This document shows, piece by piece, positions 1-41,509 of a DNA stretch of 41,509 nt. The position numbers and the translations under genes are program-made. Each line of letters begins with the position of its first letter. The first letter of the stretch is position 1. The notes below the pieces were generated by a model, which was given only the letters and a program-made list of their open reading frames with translations, was not told where the DNA came from and made no database searches. This DNA is from Bacteroidales bacterium (GTDB lineage Bacteria; Bacteroidota; Bacteroidia; Bacteroidales; UBA1715), in assembly GCA_012519815.1 (NCBI GenBank), contig JAAYPM010000075.1, positions 1 to 41,509 of the forward strand. Reading direction: 5' to 3'.

Positions 1-333
1 ATCCTCAATGGGGTGGTTCAGCTGCATTTAGTTTATAATGAAAAAGGTGAATTATTGTCTTTTTATCTTACCAAAGGAAACGTTGATGATAGAAACCCCA
101 AACATATTAAGAAAATGACAGATAAAATATTACTTCGAAACAGAGTTATGATCGAAACAATTAATGATGAGTTGAAAAATCTTTGCCAAATAGAACACAC
201 CAGACACAGAAGTATCAACAATTTTATTATGAATATTTGGAGTGGCTTGACTGCTTACTGTTTCTTTCCTAAAAAACCATCTTTAAATATCGAAAAGGTC
301 AAAGATGATCAATTACTTTTAGGATGTGCTTAA
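1..333 (+). pseudogene. IS982-family transposase remnant (C-terminal part, internally deleted)
   Basis: The readable frame runs from the window edge to the stop at 331-333. It contains segments typical of IS982-family DDE transposases: LHLVYNEKGELLSFYLTKGN followed by VDDRN, and IETINDELKNLCQIEHTRHR near the end. In the family as I recall it, about 50 residues lie between the KKMT and DKILLR segments, including a DKGY-type motif. Here the two are fused near position 120, so a catalytic block is missing. Just before LHLV, the expected GWF lies in a different frame (around 9-18), which suggests a second small deletion. This is a dead copy. The 5' part lies outside the window. Confidence 0.8.
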
Positions 334-347
334 ACCGAACTCAGGTT
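333..347 (+). repeat. Possible outer end of the IS982 remnant
   Basis: Immediately after the transposase stop lies AACCGAACTCAGGTT, with AACC and GGTT as inverted ends. Its position suits the terminal inverted repeat of the element, but the matching left end is outside the window, so the call rests on position only. Confidence 0.3.
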
Positions 348-406
348 AAGATAGCAAAAATATACATTTAGAATTTATAAAAAACACACGCCACATATTG
401 TAAATC

Positions 407-1691
407 TTACATTGGAATTTGGTCGGCATTAGTTTCTGTGAAAGAAATAGTGTAATTTCCATTATCGCCAACAAAAGCACCAAGTTTTATATAAAAATAT
501 GATTCTGAACCACTTGTATTACTCATGGAACCAGTAATAGTTTGTCCCCTATTACCATCAACATTACCAAGAAGTGTTTTATTTGTATCATACACATTAA
601 AATGTAATTCTGTATTTGAAGCTTCTGGACTAACTTCCCATTCTACTTTTTTTCCATCATATATAGTTACTTTAAAAAACTCATAATCCCCATCATTGTT
701 ATTTGCAGCATCTATCAAAATTGTGCCTGTTACAGAGGTTGGGAATGAAGTAATTTCTCTTGCATCTTCAAATGTATCATCAGGCTCATTATCATCATTT
801 CCGTTACATACGGGAGTAAATGTATAGCTACCACTTGATTTATTGTTATTTACATACCCATCCCATCCAGATACACGTACATAAAACTCATCATCTTTTG
901 AAATAAATGTATAGGTAAGATCTGCCCCTACTGTAGAAGTTCCTTTTGTTCCCAATTCTTTTTTATCAGAGCCATATATGTGAATTTTATCCATATAAAT
1001 CGTCAGATACATTTGTTAAAGTAAAGGTATATGAATTCCATATGCCGGGTGTAGGATTTGTAAATTTATAATAATCATTTTCATACATTGATACAATTAC
1101 GCCATTATAAGAAGTGTTGTATTCAAGAGAATTTGCTGCTGTTTCTATAGTATGATTCGGAGCAAAATCGTCGTTAGCATTCAAGTTAGAAACAGTAAAA
1201 GAATAATTACCACTTGAATTATGATCATTTACATATCCGTCCCATCCACTAAAACGCACATAATACTCAACTCCGGGAGTAGCAAATGTATATGTTAAAT
1301 CTTGCCCCTTAGTTTTAGTACCAAACGTTGCTAAACTAGCACCATCAATACTATATAATTCCATATGTATATATAAATCAGCAGATACATTCGTAACAGT
1401 AATTTGTATTTTATCATATGTATCACTGCCATGTGCAGGAATTATTTTAAACCAATCGTCATCGGTTTCACCGTCAATTTTTGCATTATATGTAGTATTT
1501 AATTCTATTAAAAATGCTGTTGAACGTTCGTTATTTGGTTCATATTCATCAACAAATTTTACAATATCATCATCATTTTCTTTTGGCTCAGGCTCATCTT
1601 TTTTTCCACAAGAAGCCATTGCAAACAAAATAGTTACTAATATAATTGATAGCAACGAGCATTGTTCTCTTATTTTTGTTTGATTTTTCAT
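407..1691 (-). pseudogene. Lipoprotein with three PPC-like repeats, frameshifted
   Basis: The gene starts at 1691 with a type II signal peptide and a lipobox-like MASC (Cys28), followed by a charged linker (GKKDEPEPKENDDD). Three related beta-rich units follow, opening with DEYEPNN, DDFAPNH and DNEPDD. Each has a D-x-(W/Y/F)-(F/Y)-K element, and the first two also carry an FYVRVSGWDGYVN-type strand. This resembles bacterial pre-peptidase C-terminal (PPC) domains, and no catalytic domain is visible. The frame breaks inside unit two: after LTNVSDDLY it runs into a stop at 987-989, while the other frame continues from about 1000 down to 407. A change of two bases in the short TATAT tract near 991-998 would rejoin the halves into about 425 residues. 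It may be a true pseudogene, a phase-variable tract or a sequencing error. The natural product would be a surface-anchored lipoprotein of unknown role. Confidence 0.75.
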
Positions 1692-1818
1692 AATAAAATA
1701 TTTTAGGATTTACTTTTTCTATGAGTTTATGTTGCGTAAAAATACTCATACATATTTGTATTTACAAATATTTTATATTAAAAAAGTGTTTTTTACGAAA
1801 TCAAGCACATTACAAATA

Positions 1819-4767
1819 TTATATTTTTGCGTATTCTGTTGGTGTTTTTCCATATTGTTTTACAAAGCAACTACTAAAGTAATTTGGGTCAGAAAAACCC
1901 GACATATATGCTATTTCAGATATTCTATATCCTCCAGCTTTAATTAACGAAGCGGCATACGACAGCCGCATTTGTTTTATATAATCAATAGGGGAAATAT
2001 TAAGTAGTAGTTTTATTTTTCTATATAATTTTGACCTGCTCATTCCCGCATCAGAAGCAAGTTGTTCAACAGAATATTCGGGATTAGAAAAATTTTGAAG
2101 CAATAATTCTTTAAATCGCACAAGTAATTCCTCATCATGTGTTTCTGGTTTTTCTGTGAGTTCCCATATAGAACCTGGCAATTCATATTTTTTTTGTAAA
2201 CGTGCTCGTGTTTTTAGTAAATTCACAATACGTGCAGCTAAATACATTGAATTAAATGGTTTTACTATATAATCATCAGCTCCAGCTTCTAAACCTTCTA
2301 TATAAGACGTTTCTATGCTTATTGCGGTTAGTAAAATTATGGGTATATGTGCAGTTGCTTCGTGTTTTTGTAGTGCATTGCACATATCTATTCCATTCAT
2401 TTTTGGCATTTGAATATCAGATACAATTATATCAGGAATATGTGTTTTTGCAAATTCTAATCCTTCAACACCATTTTGTGCAGTGCTTACTTTAAAATAT
2501 GGCGATAAATCCTTTTTTAAATTCTCTCTAATCGCCTCATTATCTTCTACTAACAAAACATGTTCGTTATCAGAATGTATTGTAATAGCACTATTTTTAT
2601 TTTTTTGATATTGTTGTATTATCGTTTCTTTTACCGAAGAAGTATCCACCAATTTTTTATCACCAATTGGTAATGTAATTGTTACTGTTGTTCCTTTATT
2701 TGGAGCACTCTGAATATATAATGTACCATTATTAAGCGAAATAAACTCTTTACAAATCATAAGCCCCAAACCACTACCTTTTTCATTATGTGTGCCATAG
2801 GTAGATTCTATTTCAAGCGAATTATTAAGATTATGAATTATATGTTGCGGCATACCTACCCCAGAATCTGTTATTGTTATTTCTACATGTGTATCTGACA
2901 CCGTATTTTTAATTTCAATATTTCCTAACTCTGGTGTAAATTTTATAGAATTATGAAGTATATTTCTTAAAGCAGTTTCAATCATAGTTTTATCGGCATG
3001 TATAACCGTAGATTCTACAATTGTTTTTTGAACTGAAATTTTTTTATGCGCGATATCTGTTTTAAACAGCTCTTCTAATTTTTGCATAAGTTCATCTAAA
3101 TAAAAATGAGTTTTTGCAACAGAAATATTTGATGTTTGTGTTTTTGACCACTGCAATAACTGTTCTAACAAACTATAAATTGATTGTGCAGATTCATGTA
3201 CAAGATGTGTATAATGATATTTATCTGAATCATCAATTTTATTAAAATCTGCATATAAAATTTTGGTAAAACCCAACAAACCCGAAAATGGATTTTTTAA
3301 ATCGTGAGCAATAATAGAAAACAATTTATCTTTTGTTTTGTTGGTTTTTGTAAGTTCATTATTTGCTGTTTGCAGATTTTCTGATTGTTGTACTAATAGT
3401 GTGTTTTGTGCAATTACCGCTTCTTTTTTAGTAAATAATTCTTTATTTGTAAGGGCTAATTCTTTGGTTTTTTCTTCTACAAGTTTTTGTAAATACACAT
3501 TTCTTTTTCGTATAGAACGTGTTTTTAAAACATATATAAGAATAATAATTGTTAAAATACTTACAATATTTATTGTTTTAAACCACCATGTTTTCCACCA
3601 AGGCGGCAATACAATAATTGTTAGTTGTGTTTGATTATTTTGCCAGGAACCGTCGGTATTCATAGTTCGCACCATAAATGTATATGTTCCGTCAGATAGA
3701 TTTGTGTATGTTGCAATTCGTTGATTCTCGTCGGCATTAAACCATGTTTTGTTAAAACCTTGTAATTTATATTGATATTTTATGGCATCTGCCGATATAA
3801 AATCTAAGGCAGCAAATTCTATATGTATTACATTATCAAAATGTTGCAAAACAATAGTATCTGTTAAATACACAGGTTTAGTAATATATGTGGCGGCATT
3901 AGTTGGTTCGTGTAATTGTATTTTTTTATCAAAAATTTGTATAGACTGTATAATTGTTTTTTTAGGTGGAGTTTTAGATTTTAATTTTGCAGGATTCACA
4001 AACGATAAGCCGTTAATACCACCAAAATAAATAGTACCATCTGAATCTTTTAATATAGAACTCCAATTAAATGTACCTTCTTGAAGTCCATCTTTTGAAT
4101 TAAAAAATTTTGTAGTATTTGTTTCAATATTATATACATATACACCCAAATTACTTGTAATCCACACATTGCCGTAAGCATCGCTTACAATAGCATTAGC
4201 CACAGTATTTTCTTTTATTTGCAAAGGTATTTCTTGAAATGTTTGTGTTTCAAAATCTTGTAAAAGAAAAATTTTACCCGAGCGTGAAGCAAACCATAAC
4301 TGCCCTTTTTCGTCTTCGTGTATATCATGAATTATTTGTGGATTATGTGATTTGGTATCAAAACATATTTCTTTATACTCGTTAAAATTTCCTGAATCAA
4401 ACACAAACACCCCATGAAATTCATGGCACACCCATATTCTATGTTTAGAATCGCAAAATAATTTAATAATGTTATTTGGTTCACCCTTTTTATGTACTTG
4501 TAAAATATCATAAAGAAACACATCTTTATCAGGAAAATATACATCTAATCCAGTACCTAAAGAACCTAACCATACTGCACCAGTGGTATCTTGCACAATT
4601 GTCCACACATTTGTAATGCGCATTTCTGGAGTAGAAGGCTTGGTTGAACTATAATGTTTAAGCAAAGTAAAATTAGGCGAAAATAAAAACAGCCCTTCAC
4701 TCCATGTTCCAATAGCAATAATGCCATTTTGTAAAACATGTGCAGATTTAATTACTTGCGGATATGT
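1819..4767 (-). pseudogene. Hybrid two-component system sensor/regulator, C-terminal part (split by insertion)
   Basis: This fragment carries, in order: the last beta-propeller blades of a periplasmic sensor (IGTWSEGLFLF and similar), a Y_Y_Y-type beta domain, one membrane helix (after WWKTWWFKT), a coiled linker, and a HisKA domain with the H-box SIIAHDLKNPF. An HATPase domain follows (N-box LHNSIKFTP, G-boxes DSGVGMP and GSGLGL), then a receiver domain with phospho-Asp in IIVSDIQMPKMNG and the KPF lysine, and a C-terminal AraC-type helix-turn-helix (EIAYMSGFSDPNYFSS). This is the standard architecture of Bacteroidota hybrid systems that sense a ligand in the periplasm and activate genes directly. 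It lacks its own start: the natural N-terminus is at 9746-10954. The codons upstream of 4767 belong to the inserted DNA. Read through AACCGTT, the frame joins exactly to the other half. Confidence 0.9.
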
Positions 4768-4774
4768 AACCGTT
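4768..4774. repeat. Left copy of 7-bp flanking direct repeat AACCGTT
   Basis: This is identical to 9746-9752. The two copies lie where regulator coding sequence stops on each side of the island, and collapsing them restores the regulator frame. It is a candidate target-site duplication. Confidence 0.7.
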
Positions 4775-4786
4775 ATCGGTAATGGC
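4772..4786. repeat. Left arm of 15-bp inverted repeat GTTATCGGTAATGGC
   Basis: It matches the reverse complement of 9616-9630 at 14 of 15 positions (GTTATCGGTAGTGGC). It overlaps the left direct repeat by three bases. This pair may mark the ends of the restriction-modification cassette proper, with the 9633-9743 element as an extra piece on the right. Confidence 0.6.
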
Positions 4787-5023
4787 GTTTGACCGCTCCG
4801 AAACAACATCAACGGACAAACTTTGCCAACGCTTCGCAAAATTAAAAGAGGTGCAACCAACCGCACAAATCCAACGCATTGCACCACATTTAATTTTGCT
4901 CCAACGCTCCCAAGCCCACCCACCACCCCAACATTTTTTGACAGGAATTTCAACTAAAAATTTTGGCAATCGAAACATAATGATTAAATTTGCTAAAATT
5001 GTCAAGGTAAAAATTTCAAGAAG
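4787..5023. other. Non-coding left flank of the island with CCAACGC-type repeats
   Basis: This is a C-rich, G-poor stretch on the + strand with recurring CCAACGC motifs (about 4825, 4871, 4911) and CCAACCGCACAAA at 4857-4869. The last motif recurs exactly at 9544-9556 in the right flank, and AATCCAACGC occurs at 4868-4877, 9510-9519 and 9585-9594. It must also hold the promoter of the controller gene, but I see no clear -33/-7 pair. Confidence 0.5.
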
Positions 5024-5350
5024 ATGAAAGAAACATTTGGAGCATACATTCACAAACTTAGGTCTGACAACGGCTTGACTTTGACCAAACTTGCGGCTGC
5101 ATTGGACATTGACCAATCTACACTTTCAAAAATTGAAAATGGGAAAAGAAATGTACCCGAAGAAATATTGCCCAAACTTTCAGCTTTTTTTAATCTTGAC
5201 TTGAAAAAATTAGAACACGAATATTTAAGTGAGAAAATTGCAGAGCTGATTTATCCGCAAGAAGAAACCAAAGCGATATTTAAAGCAGCCGAAGAAAAGG
5301 CAAAATATTTCAGAACAATAAAAACGCAACAAGGTACAATTGAGTTTTAA
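5024..5350 (+). CDS. Xre-family HTH regulator (putative R-M controller)
   Basis: This is a 108-residue protein with an N-terminal HTH_3 fold at about residues 7-62: LRSDNGLTLTKLAAALDI, then the recognition helix DQSTLSKIENGKRN. The acidic and lysine-rich C-terminal half has no recognised domain. It is the first gene of the restriction-modification operon, two bases before the methyltransferase start. Small Xre proteins in this position act as controller proteins that time endonuclease expression after entry into a new host. That role is inferred from position, because the protein is longer than classical C proteins (about 80 residues) and no C-box operator was identified. The start is the ATG after CAAGAAG. 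Confidence 0.85.
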   Translation: MKETFGAYIHKLRSDNGLTLTKLAAALDIDQSTLSKIENGKRNVPEEILPKLSAFFNLDLKKLEHEYLSEKIAELIYPQEETKAIFKAAEEKAKYFRTIKTQQGTIEF

Positions 5351-5352
5351 CT

Positions 5353-6408
5353 ATGGTAGGAGCATCATTATTTTCAAGTGCAGGCATAGCGGAAACTTAC
5401 TTTGATGAAGTAGGAATAAACATTGTTGCCGCTAACGAATTGGTTCAAGAAAGAGCCGATTTGTATCAGGCATTATACCCAAATTCTAAAATGATTTCAG
5501 GTAGTATTTTGGACGAAAATGTTTTTAAAAAACTTGTAAAAATCACACCTGAAAAGTTAGATTTTTTGATTGCATCGCCACCTTGTCAAGGAATGAGCGT
5601 TGCAGGGAAAAACAGAAGTGTTGAGCAAATGCTCAATGACGAAAGAAATTATCTTGTTTTCAAAATCATTGATTTTATCAAACTAAAATCGCCTGACTTT
5701 GTGCTGATTGAAAATGTTCCTACATTTTTCAAATTAGTTTTACCCTACGAAAATCAACAACTAAAAGTCGTTGAAATTTTAAATCTTCTTTTTGGCAAGG
5801 AATACAACATTGAAGCAAATGTTTATGACGCAGCGGAATTTGGCGTTGCTCAAAGACGAACAAGAGCAATCATAAAATTGTATCGAAAAGGTAAAAAATG
5901 GGGACAACCCATAAAATCTGAAAAGCAAATAACGGTAGAAGAAAAAATCGGCTTTTTACCAAGTATTGAAGCAGGAGAAAAATCAAATGTAAAATGGCAC
6001 TTTGCCCGAAAACATTCGGACAGACACGTTCAATGGATGAAGCACACACCAACAGGACAAACTGCGTTTAAAAACAAGAAATATTTCCCTGTAAAACCAA
6101 ACGGAGAAAAAATAAAAAGCTATAATACATCGTACAGACGAATTAATTGGGACGAGCCTGCACCAACAATTACAATGCGAAATGATGCAATCAGTTCGCA
6201 ACTCAACGTGCACCCGGGCAGAAAATTGAAAAACGGAACGTATTCTGATGCAAGAGTTTTGACACCGTTAGAGTTGATGTTGTTGTCGTCTTTGCCACAA
6301 GATTGGAACATTCCCGACAATACACCCGAATTACTTATCCGAAAATGTATTGGGGAATGTATTCCGCCTTTACTTGTTAAAAAGATTGTTGCCCAAATAA
6401 ACAAATAA
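5353..6408 (+). CDS. DNA (cytosine-5-)-methyltransferase
   Basis: This 351-residue protein has the C5-methyltransferase motifs in order: motif I (LFSSAGIAETYF, cofactor binding), motif IV PPCQG with catalytic Cys78, motif VI ENV (120-122), motif VIII QRR (167-169), motif IX (RVLTPLE region) and motif X (GECIPPLL). Between VIII and IX lies a target-recognition region ending in PAPTITMRNDA. It transfers a methyl group from S-adenosylmethionine to C5 of cytosine in the host recognition site and protects it from the linked endonuclease. It starts two bases after the controller gene, and the endonuclease gene follows after one base. The recognition sequence cannot be read from the protein. Confidence 0.95.
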   Translation: MVGASLFSSAGIAETYFDEVGINIVAANELVQERADLYQALYPNSKMISGSILDENVFKKLVKITPEKLDFLIASPPCQGMSVAGKNRSVEQMLNDERNYLVFKIIDFIKLKSPDFVLIENVPTFFKLVLPYENQQLKVVEILNLLFGKEYNIEANVYDAAEFGVAQRRTRAIIKLYRKGKKWGQPIKSEKQITVEEKIGFLPSIEAGEKSNVKWHFARKHSDRHVQWMKHTPTGQTAFKNKKYFPVKPNGEKIKSYNTSYRRINWDEPAPTITMRNDAISSQLNVHPGRKLKNGTYSDARVLTPLELMLLSSLPQDWNIPDNTPELLIRKCIGECIPPLLVKKIVAQINK

Positions 6409-6409
6409 T

Positions 6410-7858
6410 ATGACTTTAAGGATTGATAGTAAGAAGTGGATTTTATACAGACACACAAGAGATTTTGATAAACTTTGTGTGGTTGCTGAATTTTTAAAGT
6501 CGTACACGAAAACAGGAATTTCAACAGACGAAAAAACGCAGTTAAATTTAAAATTGCGTGAATTGGGATTGTACAGCGAGCGAAATCCCGAATTACCGCT
6601 TGATGCGATAAATCATAAAATTAATCAGCTTTCATATTATATGTTTGGCTATCAAGCCAAAGTTGAAGGACAAGACAGGTTTTTATTTAGTCCACTTGGC
6701 AACTTGTTTTTGAAACACGTTGAAGATAAAGAGAAAACGGCTAAAATATTTCTTACAATGCTTTGGGCTGTTCAATATCAACACCCACATAGCGGGACAG
6801 ATAGCGAATTTCAGCTTTATCCGTTTCGGTTGATTTACAAATTACTTTCAGAGCCAAAACTTTCAAATAAACTTTACGCTTTTGAAGTGGCTTATTCGAT
6901 TGTTTTTCTGAAAGAAGCAACCAAAACAACTTACAAAGAATTAGTAAACGAATTATTAGAATTACGCAAACTTTCTGATGATGAACTTGCTCAAAAATTT
7001 CAAGAAGACAGACACGCATTAGTAAATTCGGCTTACGAATGGGATTATTACGTTTCAAATTTGTTTGAAAGTGCAGGTGTTTTGAACAAAAAAGACGGTG
7101 TTGTGATTACCAAATTGCAACACGGCAACACAAACACTTTCCGAAAAATAACACGAAACGAAGTTTCAATTCCTGAAAATTTGAAATCGTTAATTGAACA
7201 ATTAGAAAATGAATATTCGTTTTTAGAGAAACCTTTATTGCTCAACGACCCCGAACGCTTGAAGTTGGACGTTATCAAAGAAATTTACAGTTTCTATCCA
7301 AAAACACTTTTGGTTGAAATTGGCGAAGCCATTGACGATTTTAAATTTGAATTGCTTAATCTTCCAAAACTTATTGAACAATACGCAAACAATAATGACG
7401 GAGCGGAAGCCTATCTTTTTGAAGATGCTTTGGCAGACGGCTTCAATATGTTCTACAACGTAGAAGCAAATAAAATTAGCGGAGCAGGAAACACCGATTT
7501 AGAGTGTTTATACATTCCAAGAAAGAAGAAATTTACTGTTGAAGCCAAATCAACCAAAAACAAACTTTCAGGCATAAATGCAGGAAGATTAGCAGGACAC
7601 CGTGAAAAAATTGGTGGAGCTTACACAATCGTTGTAACGCCAAGATATGTACCTGCCGTTCTTCAAGATATTCGTACAAGTCCAATCGTAATTATTAGGG
7701 CAAATACTTTTTCCGAGTATTTGTACAACTGTATTGACAATGATATACGAGAAATAGACTACGAAGATTTTGATAGCATTATCGTCAATAATCTTGGAAA
7801 AGACATCAGTAAAAACATTTCAGATTTAACGATTTCAAGGTTCGCAACCCAAAAATAA
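6410..7858 (+). CDS. Type II restriction endonuclease (PD-(D/E)xK, AlwI-like)
   Basis: This 482-residue protein lies between two DNA methyltransferase genes. Near the C-terminus, Asp363 in GAGNTDLEC is followed by Glu378-Ala-Lys380 in FTVEAKS, a typical D-x(14)-ExK metal-binding core on adjacent beta strands. The N-terminal half has a helical region with SPLGNLFLKH, FLTMLWAVQYQHPH and YPFRLIYKLL. From memory these resemble the AlwI-type endonucleases, which recognise asymmetric sites and cut outside them. The pairing with two methyltransferases of different chemistry fits an asymmetric site, in which each strand needs its own enzyme. Family assignment is moderate, and the endonuclease role from motif and context is strong. 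Confidence 0.85.
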   Translation: MTLRIDSKKWILYRHTRDFDKLCVVAEFLKSYTKTGISTDEKTQLNLKLRELGLYSERNPELPLDAINHKINQLSYYMFGYQAKVEGQDRFLFSPLGNLFLKHVEDKEKTAKIFLTMLWAVQYQHPHSGTDSEFQLYPFRLIYKLLSEPKLSNKLYAFEVAYSIVFLKEATKTTYKELVNELLELRKLSDDELAQKFQEDRHALVNSAYEWDYYVSNLFESAGVLNKKDGVVITKLQHGNTNTFRKITRNEVSIPENLKSLIEQLENEYSFLEKPLLLNDPERLKLDVIKEIYSFYPKTLLVEIGEAIDDFKFELLNLPKLIEQYANNNDGAEAYLFEDALADGFNMFYNVEANKISGAGNTDLECLYIPRKKKFTVEAKSTKNKLSGINAGRLAGHREKIGGAYTIVVTPRYVPAVLQDIRTSPIVIIRANTFSEYLYNCIDNDIREIDYEDFDSIIVNNLGKDISKNISDLTISRFATQK

Positions 7859-7865
7859 ACTTGCT

Positions 7866-8627
7866 ATGATTACAATTACAAGAGAAGACAATATGAATTT
7901 AATGGCAAGGTATCCTGACAATTATTTTGACCTTGCAATCGTTGACCCACCTTACGGAATTTTAAATAAAACCAAACGAGGCGGAGACCATAAATTTAAT
8001 ATGGACGAATACAGTCAATGGGATGTAAAACCCGATGACGAGTATTTTAATGAACTGTTTCGTGTTTCAAAAAATCAAATTATTTGGGGAGGAAATTATT
8101 TCGGACAACTTTGGGCAAGAAGTCCATACAACAAAGGGTTTATCATTTGGGATAAAAAACAACCTGAAACATTAAATAATTTTTCAATGGCTGAAATGGC
8201 TTGGAGTTCACTTGACAAGCCATCAAAAATTTTTGAGTTCAGCGTTAGAAAGAACAGAAACAAAATCCACCCGACACAAAAACCTGTTGAGCTTTACGAA
8301 TGGCTTTTGAAAATGTACGCCAATCAAGGCGACAAAATTTTAGACACACATTTGGGAAGCGGAACGATTGCGATTGCTTGTTACAATGCAGGATTAAGTT
8401 TAACCGCTTGTGAAATCAGCGAAACATATTATTTGAGTGCATTAGAAAAAATTAAAGAAGTTGTTCCTAAAACTGCAATTCATACAAATGATGCTGACGC
8501 TTTTTCTTTAACATTTCCCGAACAAGAAACATCAAAAAACGGAATGCATAAATTGTACAAAGAGCACGTTGAGCAATTACGACTTTTCAAAGAAGAACGA
8601 GCAAAGTATTATGCAATGGCGAAGTAA
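7866..8627 (+). CDS. DNA adenine (or N4-cytosine) methyltransferase, DPPY type
   Basis: This 253-residue amino-methyltransferase has catalytic DPPY at residues 27-30 and the cofactor motif DTHLGSGTIAIAC in the C-terminal half, preceded by HPTQKPVELYEWLL. Catalytic motif before cofactor motif is the beta-class order. DPPY favours N6-adenine methylation, but N4-cytosine is not excluded. It lies seven bases after the endonuclease gene. With the m5C enzyme upstream, it probably protects the second strand of a non-palindromic site. The protein is short and has almost no separate target-recognition domain, which is usual for small phage-like members. Confidence 0.93.
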   Translation: MITITREDNMNLMARYPDNYFDLAIVDPPYGILNKTKRGGDHKFNMDEYSQWDVKPDDEYFNELFRVSKNQIIWGGNYFGQLWARSPYNKGFIIWDKKQPETLNNFSMAEMAWSSLDKPSKIFEFSVRKNRNKIHPTQKPVELYEWLLKMYANQGDKILDTHLGSGTIAIACYNAGLSLTACEISETYYLSALEKIKEVVPKTAIHTNDADAFSLTFPEQETSKNGMHKLYKEHVEQLRLFKEERAKYYAMAK

Positions 8628-11122: not shown

Positions 11123-11144
11123 GTGTTTCAGATATCTGAAACAC
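11123..11144 (-). terminator. Palindrome after sdhB, probable terminator
   Basis: A perfect 22-bp palindrome (GTGTTTCAGAT and its complement) lies a few bases after the sdhB stop and before the tRNA gene. On the minus strand it can form a nine-pair stem with a four-base loop, followed by a modest T-rich stretch. It probably ends the sdhCAB transcript, although the weak T tract leaves some doubt. Confidence 0.55.
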
Positions 11145-11150
11145 AAATAT

Positions 11151-11912
11151 TTAATCTTGTAATTTTGCAACTAAAAACTCACGATTCAATCGTGCAATAT
11201 TTGCAATAGAAACACCTTTTGGACATTCAACCTCGCAAGCACCAGTATTGGTACAATTTCCAAATCCAAGTTCATCCATTTTTGCAACCATAGCTTTTGC
11301 CCGTCGAGCCGCTTCTACTTTGCCTTGTGGCAACAACGCTAATTGTGAAACTTTTGCAGCCACAAACAACATTGCCGAACCATTTTTACAAGTAGCCACG
11401 CAAGCCCCACATCCAATACACGAAGCCGCGTCCATAGCCTCATCAGCATGTTCTTTTGAAATAGGTATTGCATTTGCATCGGGCACACCACCAGTGTTTA
11501 CCGAAACAAATCCTCCTGCTGCCATAATTTTATCAAACGCACTTCTATCAACAATTAAATCTTTAATTACAGGAAACCCTGCCGAACGCCATGGTTCAAT
11601 AGTAATTGTTTCACCATCTTTAAATTTTCGCATATGCAATTGGCAGGTAGTAACATCTTCATCAGGCCCGTGTGCATGTCCATTTATATACAAATTACAC
11701 ATGCCACAAATACCCTCGCGGCAGTCATGGTCAAATGCTATAGGCATTTCATCTTTTGCAACCAATTGTTCATTAAGAACATCCATCATTTCAAGAAACG
11801 AGCTATCAGGAGATATGTCTTGTAATGAATATGTTTCAAAGTGACCTTTTTCTTTTGGTCCTTTTTGTCGCCACACTTTAATAGTGAGATTTAGTCCTTT
11901 TTTTTCATCCAT
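11151..11912 (-). CDS. sdhB: Succinate dehydrogenase/fumarate reductase iron-sulfur subunit
   Basis: This 253-residue subunit passes electrons between the flavoprotein and the membrane cytochrome. The plant-type 2Fe-2S site is [15 protein letters not shown]. The ferredoxin-like half has [15 protein letters not shown] and, further on, [15 protein letters not shown], which supply ligands for the 4Fe-4S and 3Fe-4S clusters. It is the last gene of sdhCAB, 43 bases after sdhA. The sequence type is that of the menaquinone-linked Bacteroidota enzymes with a single five-helix cytochrome, which work as succinate dehydrogenase or fumarate reductase depending on growth conditions. The direction in this organism cannot be read from sequence. 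Confidence 0.95.
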
Positions 11913-38992: not shown

Positions 38993-39724
38993 ATGATAAA
39001 AAAACACATACCAAACATACTTACTATATGTAACATGATTTGTGGCGTAATTGCAACATTAATAGCAATAGTAGGATTAGTGCCCCTTACATATGCTGCA
39101 ATTTTTGTGTTAATTGGGGCATTATGTGATTTTTTAGATGGATTTACTGCTCGCTTATTACATGCATATTCAGAAATTGGCAAGCAACTTGACTCGTTTG
39201 CCGACCTTATTACCTTTGGGTTTGCTCCTGCGGCAATAGTTTTTGCAAGTATGCAACATGCTATTTTTGGAGGAAACATAAGCGAAATTTCAGAACTAAT
39301 AAACACCGCTTTTTTATATAAAATATATTTAACAACACCTTTTTTGTTGCTCATTTTTTCTGCTATTCGGCTTGCAAAATTTAACATAGACACACGGCAA
39401 ACACACAATTTTATAGGATTACCTACTCCAGCAAATGCTTTGTTTTTTTGCGGATTTATATTTATTGATATAACAACTATTTCCCCTGTAATTATATCAA
39501 TCAGTATTATTCTTTTTTCGTATCTTCTTATTTCAGAAATACCTATGTTTTCGTTAAAAATAAAATCATTATCATTTAAAAAAGCACCTATACAGTTTAT
39601 TTTTATACTACTTTCTGTGATTTTTATAGTGTTTTTTAAATTACGAGCATGTTCATTTATAATACTTATTTACATATTTATATCAATCATTGATTGGTTG
39701 TTAAAAAAACAAAAAATTACATAA
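38993..39724 (+). CDS. pssA: CDP-diacylglycerol-serine O-phosphatidyltransferase
   Basis: This 243-residue membrane protein has the CDP-alcohol phosphotransferase motif D-x2-DG-x2-AR-x8-G-x3-D-x3-D, seen as CDFLDGFTARLLHAYSEIG followed by KQLDSFAD. Several hydrophobic helices follow. The N-terminus IPNILTICNMICGV is typical of PssA, which makes phosphatidylserine, the precursor of phosphatidylethanolamine. The end overlaps the region upstream of map by a few bases. Confidence 0.92.
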   Translation: MIKKHIPNILTICNMICGVIATLIAIVGLVPLTYAAIFVLIGALCDFLDGFTARLLHAYSEIGKQLDSFADLITFGFAPAAIVFASMQHAIFGGNISEISELINTAFLYKIYLTTPFLLLIFSAIRLAKFNIDTRQTHNFIGLPTPANALFFCGFIFIDITTISPVIISISIILFSYLLISEIPMFSLKIKSLSFKKAPIQFIFILLSVIFIVFFKLRACSFIILIYIFISIIDWLLKKQKIT

Positions 39725-39726
39725 TT

Positions 39727-40593
39727 ATGAAATTATTACCTAACGATCCATGTTGGTGTGGAAGCGGAGTGAAATACAAAAAATGCCATAAAAAATTTGA
39801 TTTAGAAACAGAAACATATCGCAAACAAGGATACATAATTTTTCCGCCAAGTTTATTAAAATCCAAACAAGATATTGAAGGAATGAGAGCTTCTGGCGAC
39901 ATTACACGTGGTATTCTTGACATGCTCACAGATGAAATAAAAGAAGGCGTTTCCACACAAAAAATTGACGATTTAGTAAGAGAATATACTTATGATCATA
40001 ATGCAATACCAGCAACTCTTAACTATAAAGGATTTCCAAAATCGTGTTGCACATCTATAAACGAATGTGTGTGCCATGGAATACCCGATAGCAATCGCAT
40101 GCTTAAAGATGGGGATATTATTAATGTTGATGTTACAACTATTTTAAATGGATATTATGCTGACAGTAGCCGCATGTATTCGGTAGGCACCCTTTCTGAA
40201 AATGCAGCAAATATTGTACGAGTAGCAAAAGAATGTTTAGACATTGGTATTGAGCAAGTTAAACCATACAGTCGCCTCAATAACATAGGCGATGCGATTG
40301 AAGAACATGCAAAAAAACATGGATACAGCATTGTAAGAGATTTATGTGGGCATGGCGTTGGAAAAGAATTTCACGAAGAACCCGAAATTCTTCATTATGC
40401 ACAACCAAAACGCAAAGGAATATTACTTGTTCCGGGCATGACGTTTACTATAGAACCAATGCTTAACGAAGGCACACATAAATGCAAATTTTTACGAGAC
40501 GGGTGGACTGTAGAAACAGCTGATAAAAAACTTTCTGCTCAATGGGAACACACATTAGTTGTTACCGACGAAGGATATGAAATACTTACATAA
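39727..40593 (+). CDS. map: Methionine aminopeptidase with N-terminal SEC-C motif
   Basis: This 288-residue protein starts at the ATG at 39727. Residues 1-20 hold a SEC-C zinc motif (CWCGSGVKYKKCH), which in SecA and other proteins binds the ribosome or partner proteins. The catalytic domain has HGIPD, INVDVTTILNGYYADSSRMY (two metal Asp), HGVGKEFHEEP, FTIEPML and WEHTLVV, supplying the usual D-D-H-E-E metal ligands. It removes the initiator methionine co-translationally. A longer start at 39694 overlaps pssA coding sequence and is not needed. Confidence 0.94.
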   Translation: MKLLPNDPCWCGSGVKYKKCHKKFDLETETYRKQGYIIFPPSLLKSKQDIEGMRASGDITRGILDMLTDEIKEGVSTQKIDDLVREYTYDHNAIPATLNYKGFPKSCCTSINECVCHGIPDSNRMLKDGDIINVDVTTILNGYYADSSRMYSVGTLSENAANIVRVAKECLDIGIEQVKPYSRLNNIGDAIEEHAKKHGYSIVRDLCGHGVGKEFHEEPEILHYAQPKRKGILLVPGMTFTIEPMLNEGTHKCKFLRDGWTVETADKKLSAQWEHTLVVTDEGYEILT

Positions 40594-40617: not shown

Positions 40618-41455
40618 TTGTCAAGTATCTATATCCATATTCCATATTGTAAAAAACTCTGTTATTATTGCGATTTTTATTTTAGTTTGCAATTAAACAC
40701 AAAACAAGATTACATTGCAGCTGTGTGCAAAGAACTTGTTTTACAGAAAGGTTTTTTTTCTGACACAACAACAATCAACACAATTTATTTTGGTGGAGGA
40801 ACGCCTTCAGTTCTTTCAATACACGAAATAAAAACAGTATTACACACCATTGCTACACTTTGGACGATTTCTGAAGACGCAGAAATCACCTTTGAATGTA
40901 ATCCCGATGATATTACAAAAGAATATTGTCAAGAATTATTACACATTGGTATAAATAGAATAAGTGTAGGTATTCAATCATTTTTTGACAAGGAATTGTT
41001 AGCATTAAATCGCAGACATACAGCAAAACAAGCTATATCAGCTATACAATTAATTAAAGATTCTGGTTTTAAAAACTGCACCATAGATGTAATATACGGA
41101 CTCCCCTTGCAAACGCTTGCAACATGGAAAAAAACCCTTGAAATAGCAGCAGATTTATCTATACAGCACATATCAGCCTATGCATTAGGCGTAGAAGAAA
41201 AAACCGCTTTATATTCATTTGTATCAAAAGGAAAAATCATACTACCTCAGGAACAAACAATTATAGAGCAATTTACCTATCTTACAGAGTGGGCACAAAA
41301 AAATAATTTTGAGCATTACGAAATATCAAATTTTGCAAAACCTGGATTTTACTCACAACACAACTCATTATATTGGGAACAAAAACCATATTTAGGAATT
41401 GGAGCATCGGCACATTCATATGATGGAAACGTTCGATATTGGAATATTGCACAAA
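40618..41455 (+). CDS. hemW: HemW-like radical SAM protein, truncated by contig-end artefact
   Basis: The N-terminal 279 residues of an anaerobic-coproporphyrinogen-oxidase-like protein start at TTG 40618, directly after an in-frame TAA, so no upstream start exists in frame. The radical SAM cluster motif is IPYCKKLCYYCDFYF (C-x3-C-x2-C), followed by YFGGGTPSVLS, ISVGIQSFFDKELLALNRRH and YGLPLQTLATW. HemW is thought to bind and deliver haem. Normal length is about 375 residues. After RYWNIAQN the sequence turns into the reverse complement of 41254-41311, so the last residues (YFFVPTL) and the stop are not real. Confidence 0.88.
41254..41311. repeat. Inner arm of a perfect 58-nt inverted repeat
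   Basis: The reverse complement of this segment of hemW is found, without mismatch, at 41452-41509, the very end of the window. The inner arm is genuine coding sequence (QTIIEQFTYLTEWAQKNNF). Confidence 0.95.
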
Positions 41456-41509
41456 ATTATTTTTTTGTGCCCACTCTGTAAGATAGGTAAATTGCTCTAT
41501 AATTGTTTG
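41452..41509. repeat. Outer arm of the 58-nt inverted repeat at the window end
   Basis: This is the exact reverse complement of 41254-41311 with a 140-base spacer. It interrupts hemW at a GCACAAAATT/AATTTTGTGC-like microhomology. It is most likely a chimeric or fold-back read at the contig end rather than genomic DNA. Confidence 0.9.

What the first reader, a model, noticed from the sequence alone, without database searches (positions are those of the whole stretch)
41254..41509. Perfect 58-nt fold-back at the end of the window
41452-41509 is the exact reverse complement of 41254-41311, with a short palindromic microhomology at the switch. It destroys hemW. Such inverted ends are typical of chimeric amplification products or assembly ends, so the final 58 bases should not be annotated as biology.
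Basis: seen in the sequence. Interest (0 to 1): 0.5.

Follow-up and report, generated by a model that had tools for sequence, protein, structure and literature searches.

The report
Chimeric fold-back at a contig end
The last 58 bases of this contig are a backwards copy of bases about 200 positions earlier, a sequencing or assembly artefact that cuts the ordinary gene hemW, whose other end lies at the start of another contig of the same genome.

Summary
41452-41509 is the exact reverse complement of 41254-41311 (58 of 58), with 140 nt between. The next exact inverted repeat in the window is 19 nt. The window is a whole contig, C16 of a 146-contig draft genome. hemW, a radical-SAM gene, runs intact up to the switch. 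Its missing C-terminal domain starts at base 4 of another contig, C126. All 11 relatives measured put exactly 60 nt between the two pieces, and six related genomes have the next C126 gene downstream of hemW. So the contig breaks over a gap of roughly 50 nt, and the final 58 bases are not part of the gene. The same artefact recurs in this assembly. C4 has a 36-nt terminal fold-back that contig C52 contradicts by reading straight through, and C20 is a perfect 8052-base palindrome. Terminal fold-backs of at least 18 nt occur at 2 of 148 readable contig ends and 0 of 14,800 interior control points. A junction microhomology of about 5 nt fits snap-back priming during amplification or library preparation.

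The parts
40618..41451 (+). 5' part of hemW (HemN-like radical SAM protein), genuine sequence, coded up to the switch point; start codon not verified
   Evidence: TIGR00539 275.6 bits, cut-off 205.4, model positions 2-271 of 361; PF04055 Radical_SAM; 55-59% identity to same-family relatives over the aligned stretch
41254..41311 (+). first arm: genuine hemW coding sequence, the template of the copy
   Evidence: exact match to the reverse complement of 41452-41509; in frame with hemW
41312..41451 (+). spacer of 140 nt between the arms: genuine hemW coding sequence
   Evidence: aligns to relatives up to ..RYWNI
41452..41456 (+). microhomology at the switch (CAAAA); could be read from either strand
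   Evidence: forward strand ..TTGCACAAAA against template strand ..ATGCTCAAAA (sequence)
41452..41509 (-). second arm: chimeric reverse copy ending at the last base of the contig; should be trimmed and not annotated
   Evidence: the frame is stopped at 41479-41481; hemW continues in contig C126 instead
39694..40593 (+). type M24 metallopeptidase with SEC-C motif (map, methionine aminopeptidase) upstream of hemW; genuine neighbour used for the gene-order check
   Evidence: PF00557, PF02810; found upstream of hemW in 6 of 21 related loci

Best explanation
The final 58 bases are a chimera, not genome sequence. During amplification or library preparation a single strand ending near 41456 folded back, its 3' end (..CAAAA) annealed to the complementary short stretch beside 41311, and it was extended for at least 53 bases using its own upstream sequence as template. 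Coverage was too thin to carry the assembly across the true hemW sequence here. The contig therefore became a dead end and kept the chimeric read as its last 58 bases. The true gene goes on for about 50 nt that are missing from the assembly and then into contig C126. Shown here: the exact fold-back, its flush position at the contig end, the split of hemW between C16 and C126, the expected 60-nt distance, and other fold-backs in the same assembly. Inferred: snap-back priming, low coverage, and a de Bruijn assembly with k of 127.
For: Exact 58-nt arms flush with the contig end. HemN_C at C126:4-198, and no C-terminal match after position 271 in C16. A gap of 60 nt in all 11 relatives computed (11 of the 21 loci). 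The polysaccharide flippase next to hemW in C126 also lies downstream of hemW in 7 of 21 related loci, from six genomes, and map upstream in 6 of 21; three loci hold all three genes. Terminal fold-backs of at least 18 nt: 2 of 148 readable ends against 0 of 14,800 interior pseudo-ends; of at least 15 nt: 3 of 148 against 4 of 14,800. C52 reads through the place where C4 folds back, with an open frame. C20 is a perfect 8052-base palindrome whose central gene is cut at the centre. Four pairs of contig ends overlap by exactly 127 nt and four by 23-26 nt, as expected of a k=127 graph whose other breaks are low-coverage dead ends. Published MDA chimeras are mostly inverted, with short complementarity (PMC1855051, passages; PMC4595205, passages). 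Perfectly mirrored contigs were reported in single-cell assemblies and called likely assembly artefacts (PMC12755884, one passage).
Against: No reads were available, so the chimera was not seen read by read. No contig that reads straight across 41451 was found; C126 starts about 50 nt further on, so the link is by protein and gene order, not by overlap. The distances here (140 and 86 nt) are shorter than the 250-300 nt peak reported for MDA chimeras, and the method used to make this genome is unknown.
Confidence: 0.96

Rival explanations
1. The chimera was made purely by the assembler, by joining a path to its own reverse strand through a short shared k-mer, with no chimeric molecule behind it.
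For: The assembly has a fully palindromic contig, and mirrored contigs have been called assembly artefacts (PMC12755884).
Against: The shared stretch at the switch is only 5 nt (8 of 9 with a mismatch), far below the 127-nt word suggested by the end overlaps. A graph assembler needs a read that spans the switch. Early rounds with small words could still contribute.
Confidence: 0.1
2. The fold-back is a real inverted duplication in some cells of the sampled population, made in vivo by template switching at a replication fork, with intact hemW in the others.
For: Short microhomology and a nearby inverted copy are also what in vivo template switching leaves (recalled). Nothing here excludes a minority variant.
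Against: The copy stops exactly at the contig end; fold-backs of this kind sit at contig ends in this assembly and not at interior control points; C4's fold-back is contradicted by C52; hemW is uninterrupted in the relatives.
Confidence: 0.02
3. It is a functional inverted repeat, such as a hairpin end of a linear replicon, a phase-variation site or a transposon end.
For: It lies at the end of a contig and is perfect.
Against: Both arms and the spacer lie inside the coding sequence of hemW, whose remainder is on another contig; hemW of 14 related loci has no exact inverted repeat over 14 nt.
Confidence: 0.01

Closest known systems
Inverted chimeras of multiple displacement amplification (PMC1855051; PMC4595205)
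   Same: Two nearby segments joined in inverted orientation, with a few complementary bases at the junction. The papers report 85% inverted (406 of 475) and overlaps mostly of 5-8 nt; here about 5 nt.
   Different: Distances here are 140 and 86 nt, below the reported 250-300 nt peak. Whether this genome was made by MDA is not known.
Inverted-repeat chimeric reads from library preparation (PMC10908179)
   Same: Reads that switch to the opposite strand beside a short inverted repeat after single-strand pairing and end repair (abstract and passages).
   Different: That study is of human tumour DNA and variant calls, not of contig ends.
Palindromic contigs in single-cell assemblies (PMC12755884)
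   Same: Contigs whose first half is mirrored exactly in the second, judged very likely assembly artefacts (one passage); C20 of this assembly is exactly such a contig.
   Different: C16 carries only a 58-nt beginning of such a mirror.

Membership tests
Fold-back (inverted) chimera artefact | second segment is the reverse complement of a nearby upstream segment | tested here: met
   58 of 58 matches, 140 nt apart
Fold-back (inverted) chimera artefact | short complementarity at the switch | tested here: met
   CAAAA, 5 nt exact, 8 of 9 with one mismatch (sequence)
Fold-back (inverted) chimera artefact | the interrupted gene continues elsewhere in the same genome | tested here: met
   hemW C-terminus at the start of C126; about 50 nt between the pieces are not in the assembly
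Fold-back (inverted) chimera artefact | similar chimeras elsewhere in the same assembly | tested here: met
   C4 left end, C20 whole contig, weakly C102 left end
Fold-back (inverted) chimera artefact | few or single supporting reads | not testable with these tools
   no reads held
MDA chimera in particular | genome amplified by phi29 polymerase | not testable with these tools
HemW (HemN-related radical SAM protein) | Radical SAM domain followed by a HemN_C domain | tested here: met
   PF04055 in the window part; PF06969 in C126; TIGR00539 above cut-off
Hairpin telomere or other functional inverted repeat | lies at the true end of a replicon or outside coding sequence | tested here: not met
   inside hemW, which continues in C126

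The most novel reading that the evidence does not exclude
A minority of cells of this Bacteroidales population carry a real inverted duplication inside hemW, made in vivo by template switching at a 5-nt microhomology.
Probability: 0.02. Interest if true: 0.2.

Novelty: not a real feature. Interest (0 to 1): 0.05.

Why it matters
It matters only for annotation. The last 58 bases (41452-41509) should be trimmed, hemW should be annotated as partial at a contig end rather than as a pseudogene or a shortened protein, and C16 and C126 can be treated as neighbours. The same assembly has at least one further fold-back end that another contig contradicts (C4) and one wholly mirrored contig (C20) whose genes would be counted twice.

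Tried and rejected
A functional inverted repeat (hairpin end, invertible segment, terminator) was rejected because both arms and the spacer are hemW coding sequence that continues on C126, and hemW of 14 related loci shows no exact inverted repeat over 14 nt. An explanation by the fixed overlap of a de Bruijn graph, in which the arm length equals the word length, was considered and dropped: the word length read from end overlaps is 127, not 58. The end is therefore a dead end with a chimeric tail, not a graph overlap. A search of the same genome for the C-terminal half of the esterase that is cut at the centre of C20 found only a paralogue on C139 (36% identity), and the family search gave no match at a contig end, so C20's continuation was not shown. 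C102's 15-nt terminal inverted repeat is too short to call: 4 of 14,800 interior control points reach 15 nt. A paper search for dead-end and fold-back terms with an assembler's name found nothing. One paper on chimeric reads that I wanted is not held. In one search the translations of three relatives (L004, L005, L008) came out short because those loci lie on the other strand; they were left out of the reading of that alignment and handled on the right strand.

Full report
What was claimed and what is there. A direct comparison gives 58 of 58 matches between 41254-41311 and the reverse complement of 41452-41509. The repeat finder extends it to 65 nt at 97%. The next longest exact inverted repeat in the 41.5 kb is 19 nt. 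The window is a complete contig, C16 of a draft genome of 146 contigs and 2.26 Mb, 94.9% complete, so the copy ends exactly at a contig end. Its hemW relatives are from Bacteroidales or wider Bacteroidota (record titles, for example Bacteroidales bacterium UBA1715).

The gene that is cut. The frame from 40618 is HemW, a HemN-related radical SAM protein: TIGR00539 275.6 bits against a cut-off of 205.4, positions 2-271 of 361, and PF04055. It aligns to relatives up to ..RYWNI at 41448. After the switch the frame reads the opposite strand and stops at 41479-41481.

Where the rest of hemW is. A search of the same genome with the HemN_C family gives one match, at bases 4-198 of contig C126, 38.1 bits against a cut-off of 24. 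Its first codons read straight into a HemW C-terminus with a stop at 238-240. In all 11 related loci for which I computed it (11 of 21 loci), exactly 60 nt lie between the codon matching window 41446-41448 and the codon matching the first of C126. The first three of these, and perhaps about five more, are present in C16, so roughly 50 nt are missing from the assembly. Next on C126 come a polysaccharide flippase, a dUTPase and a nucleotidyltransferase. The flippase lies downstream of hemW in 7 of 21 related loci, from six genomes (two of the loci, L007 and L028, appear to be the same record, with equal contig length). It was not found in the other 14 loci as fetched. The M24 peptidase that precedes hemW in the window precedes it in 6 of 21, and three loci hold all three genes. 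C16 and C126 are therefore most likely neighbours and hemW is whole in the organism. This link rests on protein alignment and gene order, not on overlapping DNA.

The same artefact elsewhere in the assembly. I read both ends of 82 of 146 contigs, 164 ends; 16 ends (eight contigs) were masked, leaving 148. Terminal inverted repeats flush with the end: C16 right (58 nt, spacer 140), C4 left (36 nt, spacer 86) and C102 left (15 nt, spacer 88). At 18 nt or more that is 2 of 148, against 0 of 14,800 interior pseudo-ends. At 15 nt or more it is 3 of 148 against 4 of 14,800, so C102 alone would prove little. For C4 there is a direct contradiction: contig C52 reads the same gene, a membrane fusion protein by recalled likeness, straight through with an open frame where C4 turns back. 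C20 is the extreme form, a perfect 8052-base palindrome of two 4026-base halves, with a carbohydrate esterase gene (CE2_N domain) cut at its centre. The three nearest relatives have an open frame of 362-375 aa for that gene where C20 has 191. I did not find the missing half of that gene elsewhere in the genome.

How it most likely arose. Four pairs of sampled ends overlap by exactly 127 nt and four by 23-26 nt. I read this as a de Bruijn assembly with a word of 127, in which other breaks are places where reads overlap too little. At such a dead end a single chimeric read can supply the last bases. The junction has a 5-nt match, CAAAA, and 8 of 9 with one mismatch. A strand whose 3' end folds back on itself and is extended gives exactly this structure. 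Published MDA chimeras are 85% inverted, 406 of 475, with up to 21 complementary bases (PMC1855051, passages). A larger study gives overlaps mostly of 5-8 nt, peak 6, and a distance peak of 250-300 nt (PMC4595205, passages); the distances here are shorter. Library preparation without MDA also makes inverted chimeric reads (PMC10908179, abstract and passages). A study of single-cell genomes removed exactly mirrored contigs as likely assembly artefacts (PMC12755884, one passage). Which step made this one cannot be told from the assembly.

What remains open. Without reads I cannot count the molecules behind the fold-back, and a minority real inverted duplication is not formally excluded; I give it 2%. 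Everything else points to an artefact.

Noticed in passing
L159 (contig C20 of the same genome), 1-8052: A whole contig that is a perfect palindrome (4026 + 4026), so all its genes appear twice in the assembly; the esterase gene at the centre is truncated.
   Followed up: partly
L160 (contig C4), 1-158, and L122 (contig C52 right end): A second terminal fold-back, 36 nt with an 86-nt spacer, contradicted by C52, which reads straight through the same gene.
   Followed up: yes
window 1-333: The left end of the contig lies inside a DDE transposase gene (PF13612, PF01609), a usual place for a contig to break.
   Followed up: no
window 11123-11144: A short perfect palindrome (19-nt overlapping exact arms) just downstream of the minus-strand ORF 11151-11912; possibly a terminator.
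   Followed up: no
contig-end pairs C2/C128, C40/C33, C48/C11, C68/C122 of the same genome: Ends that overlap by exactly 127 nt, suggesting the assembly word length.
   Followed up: yes
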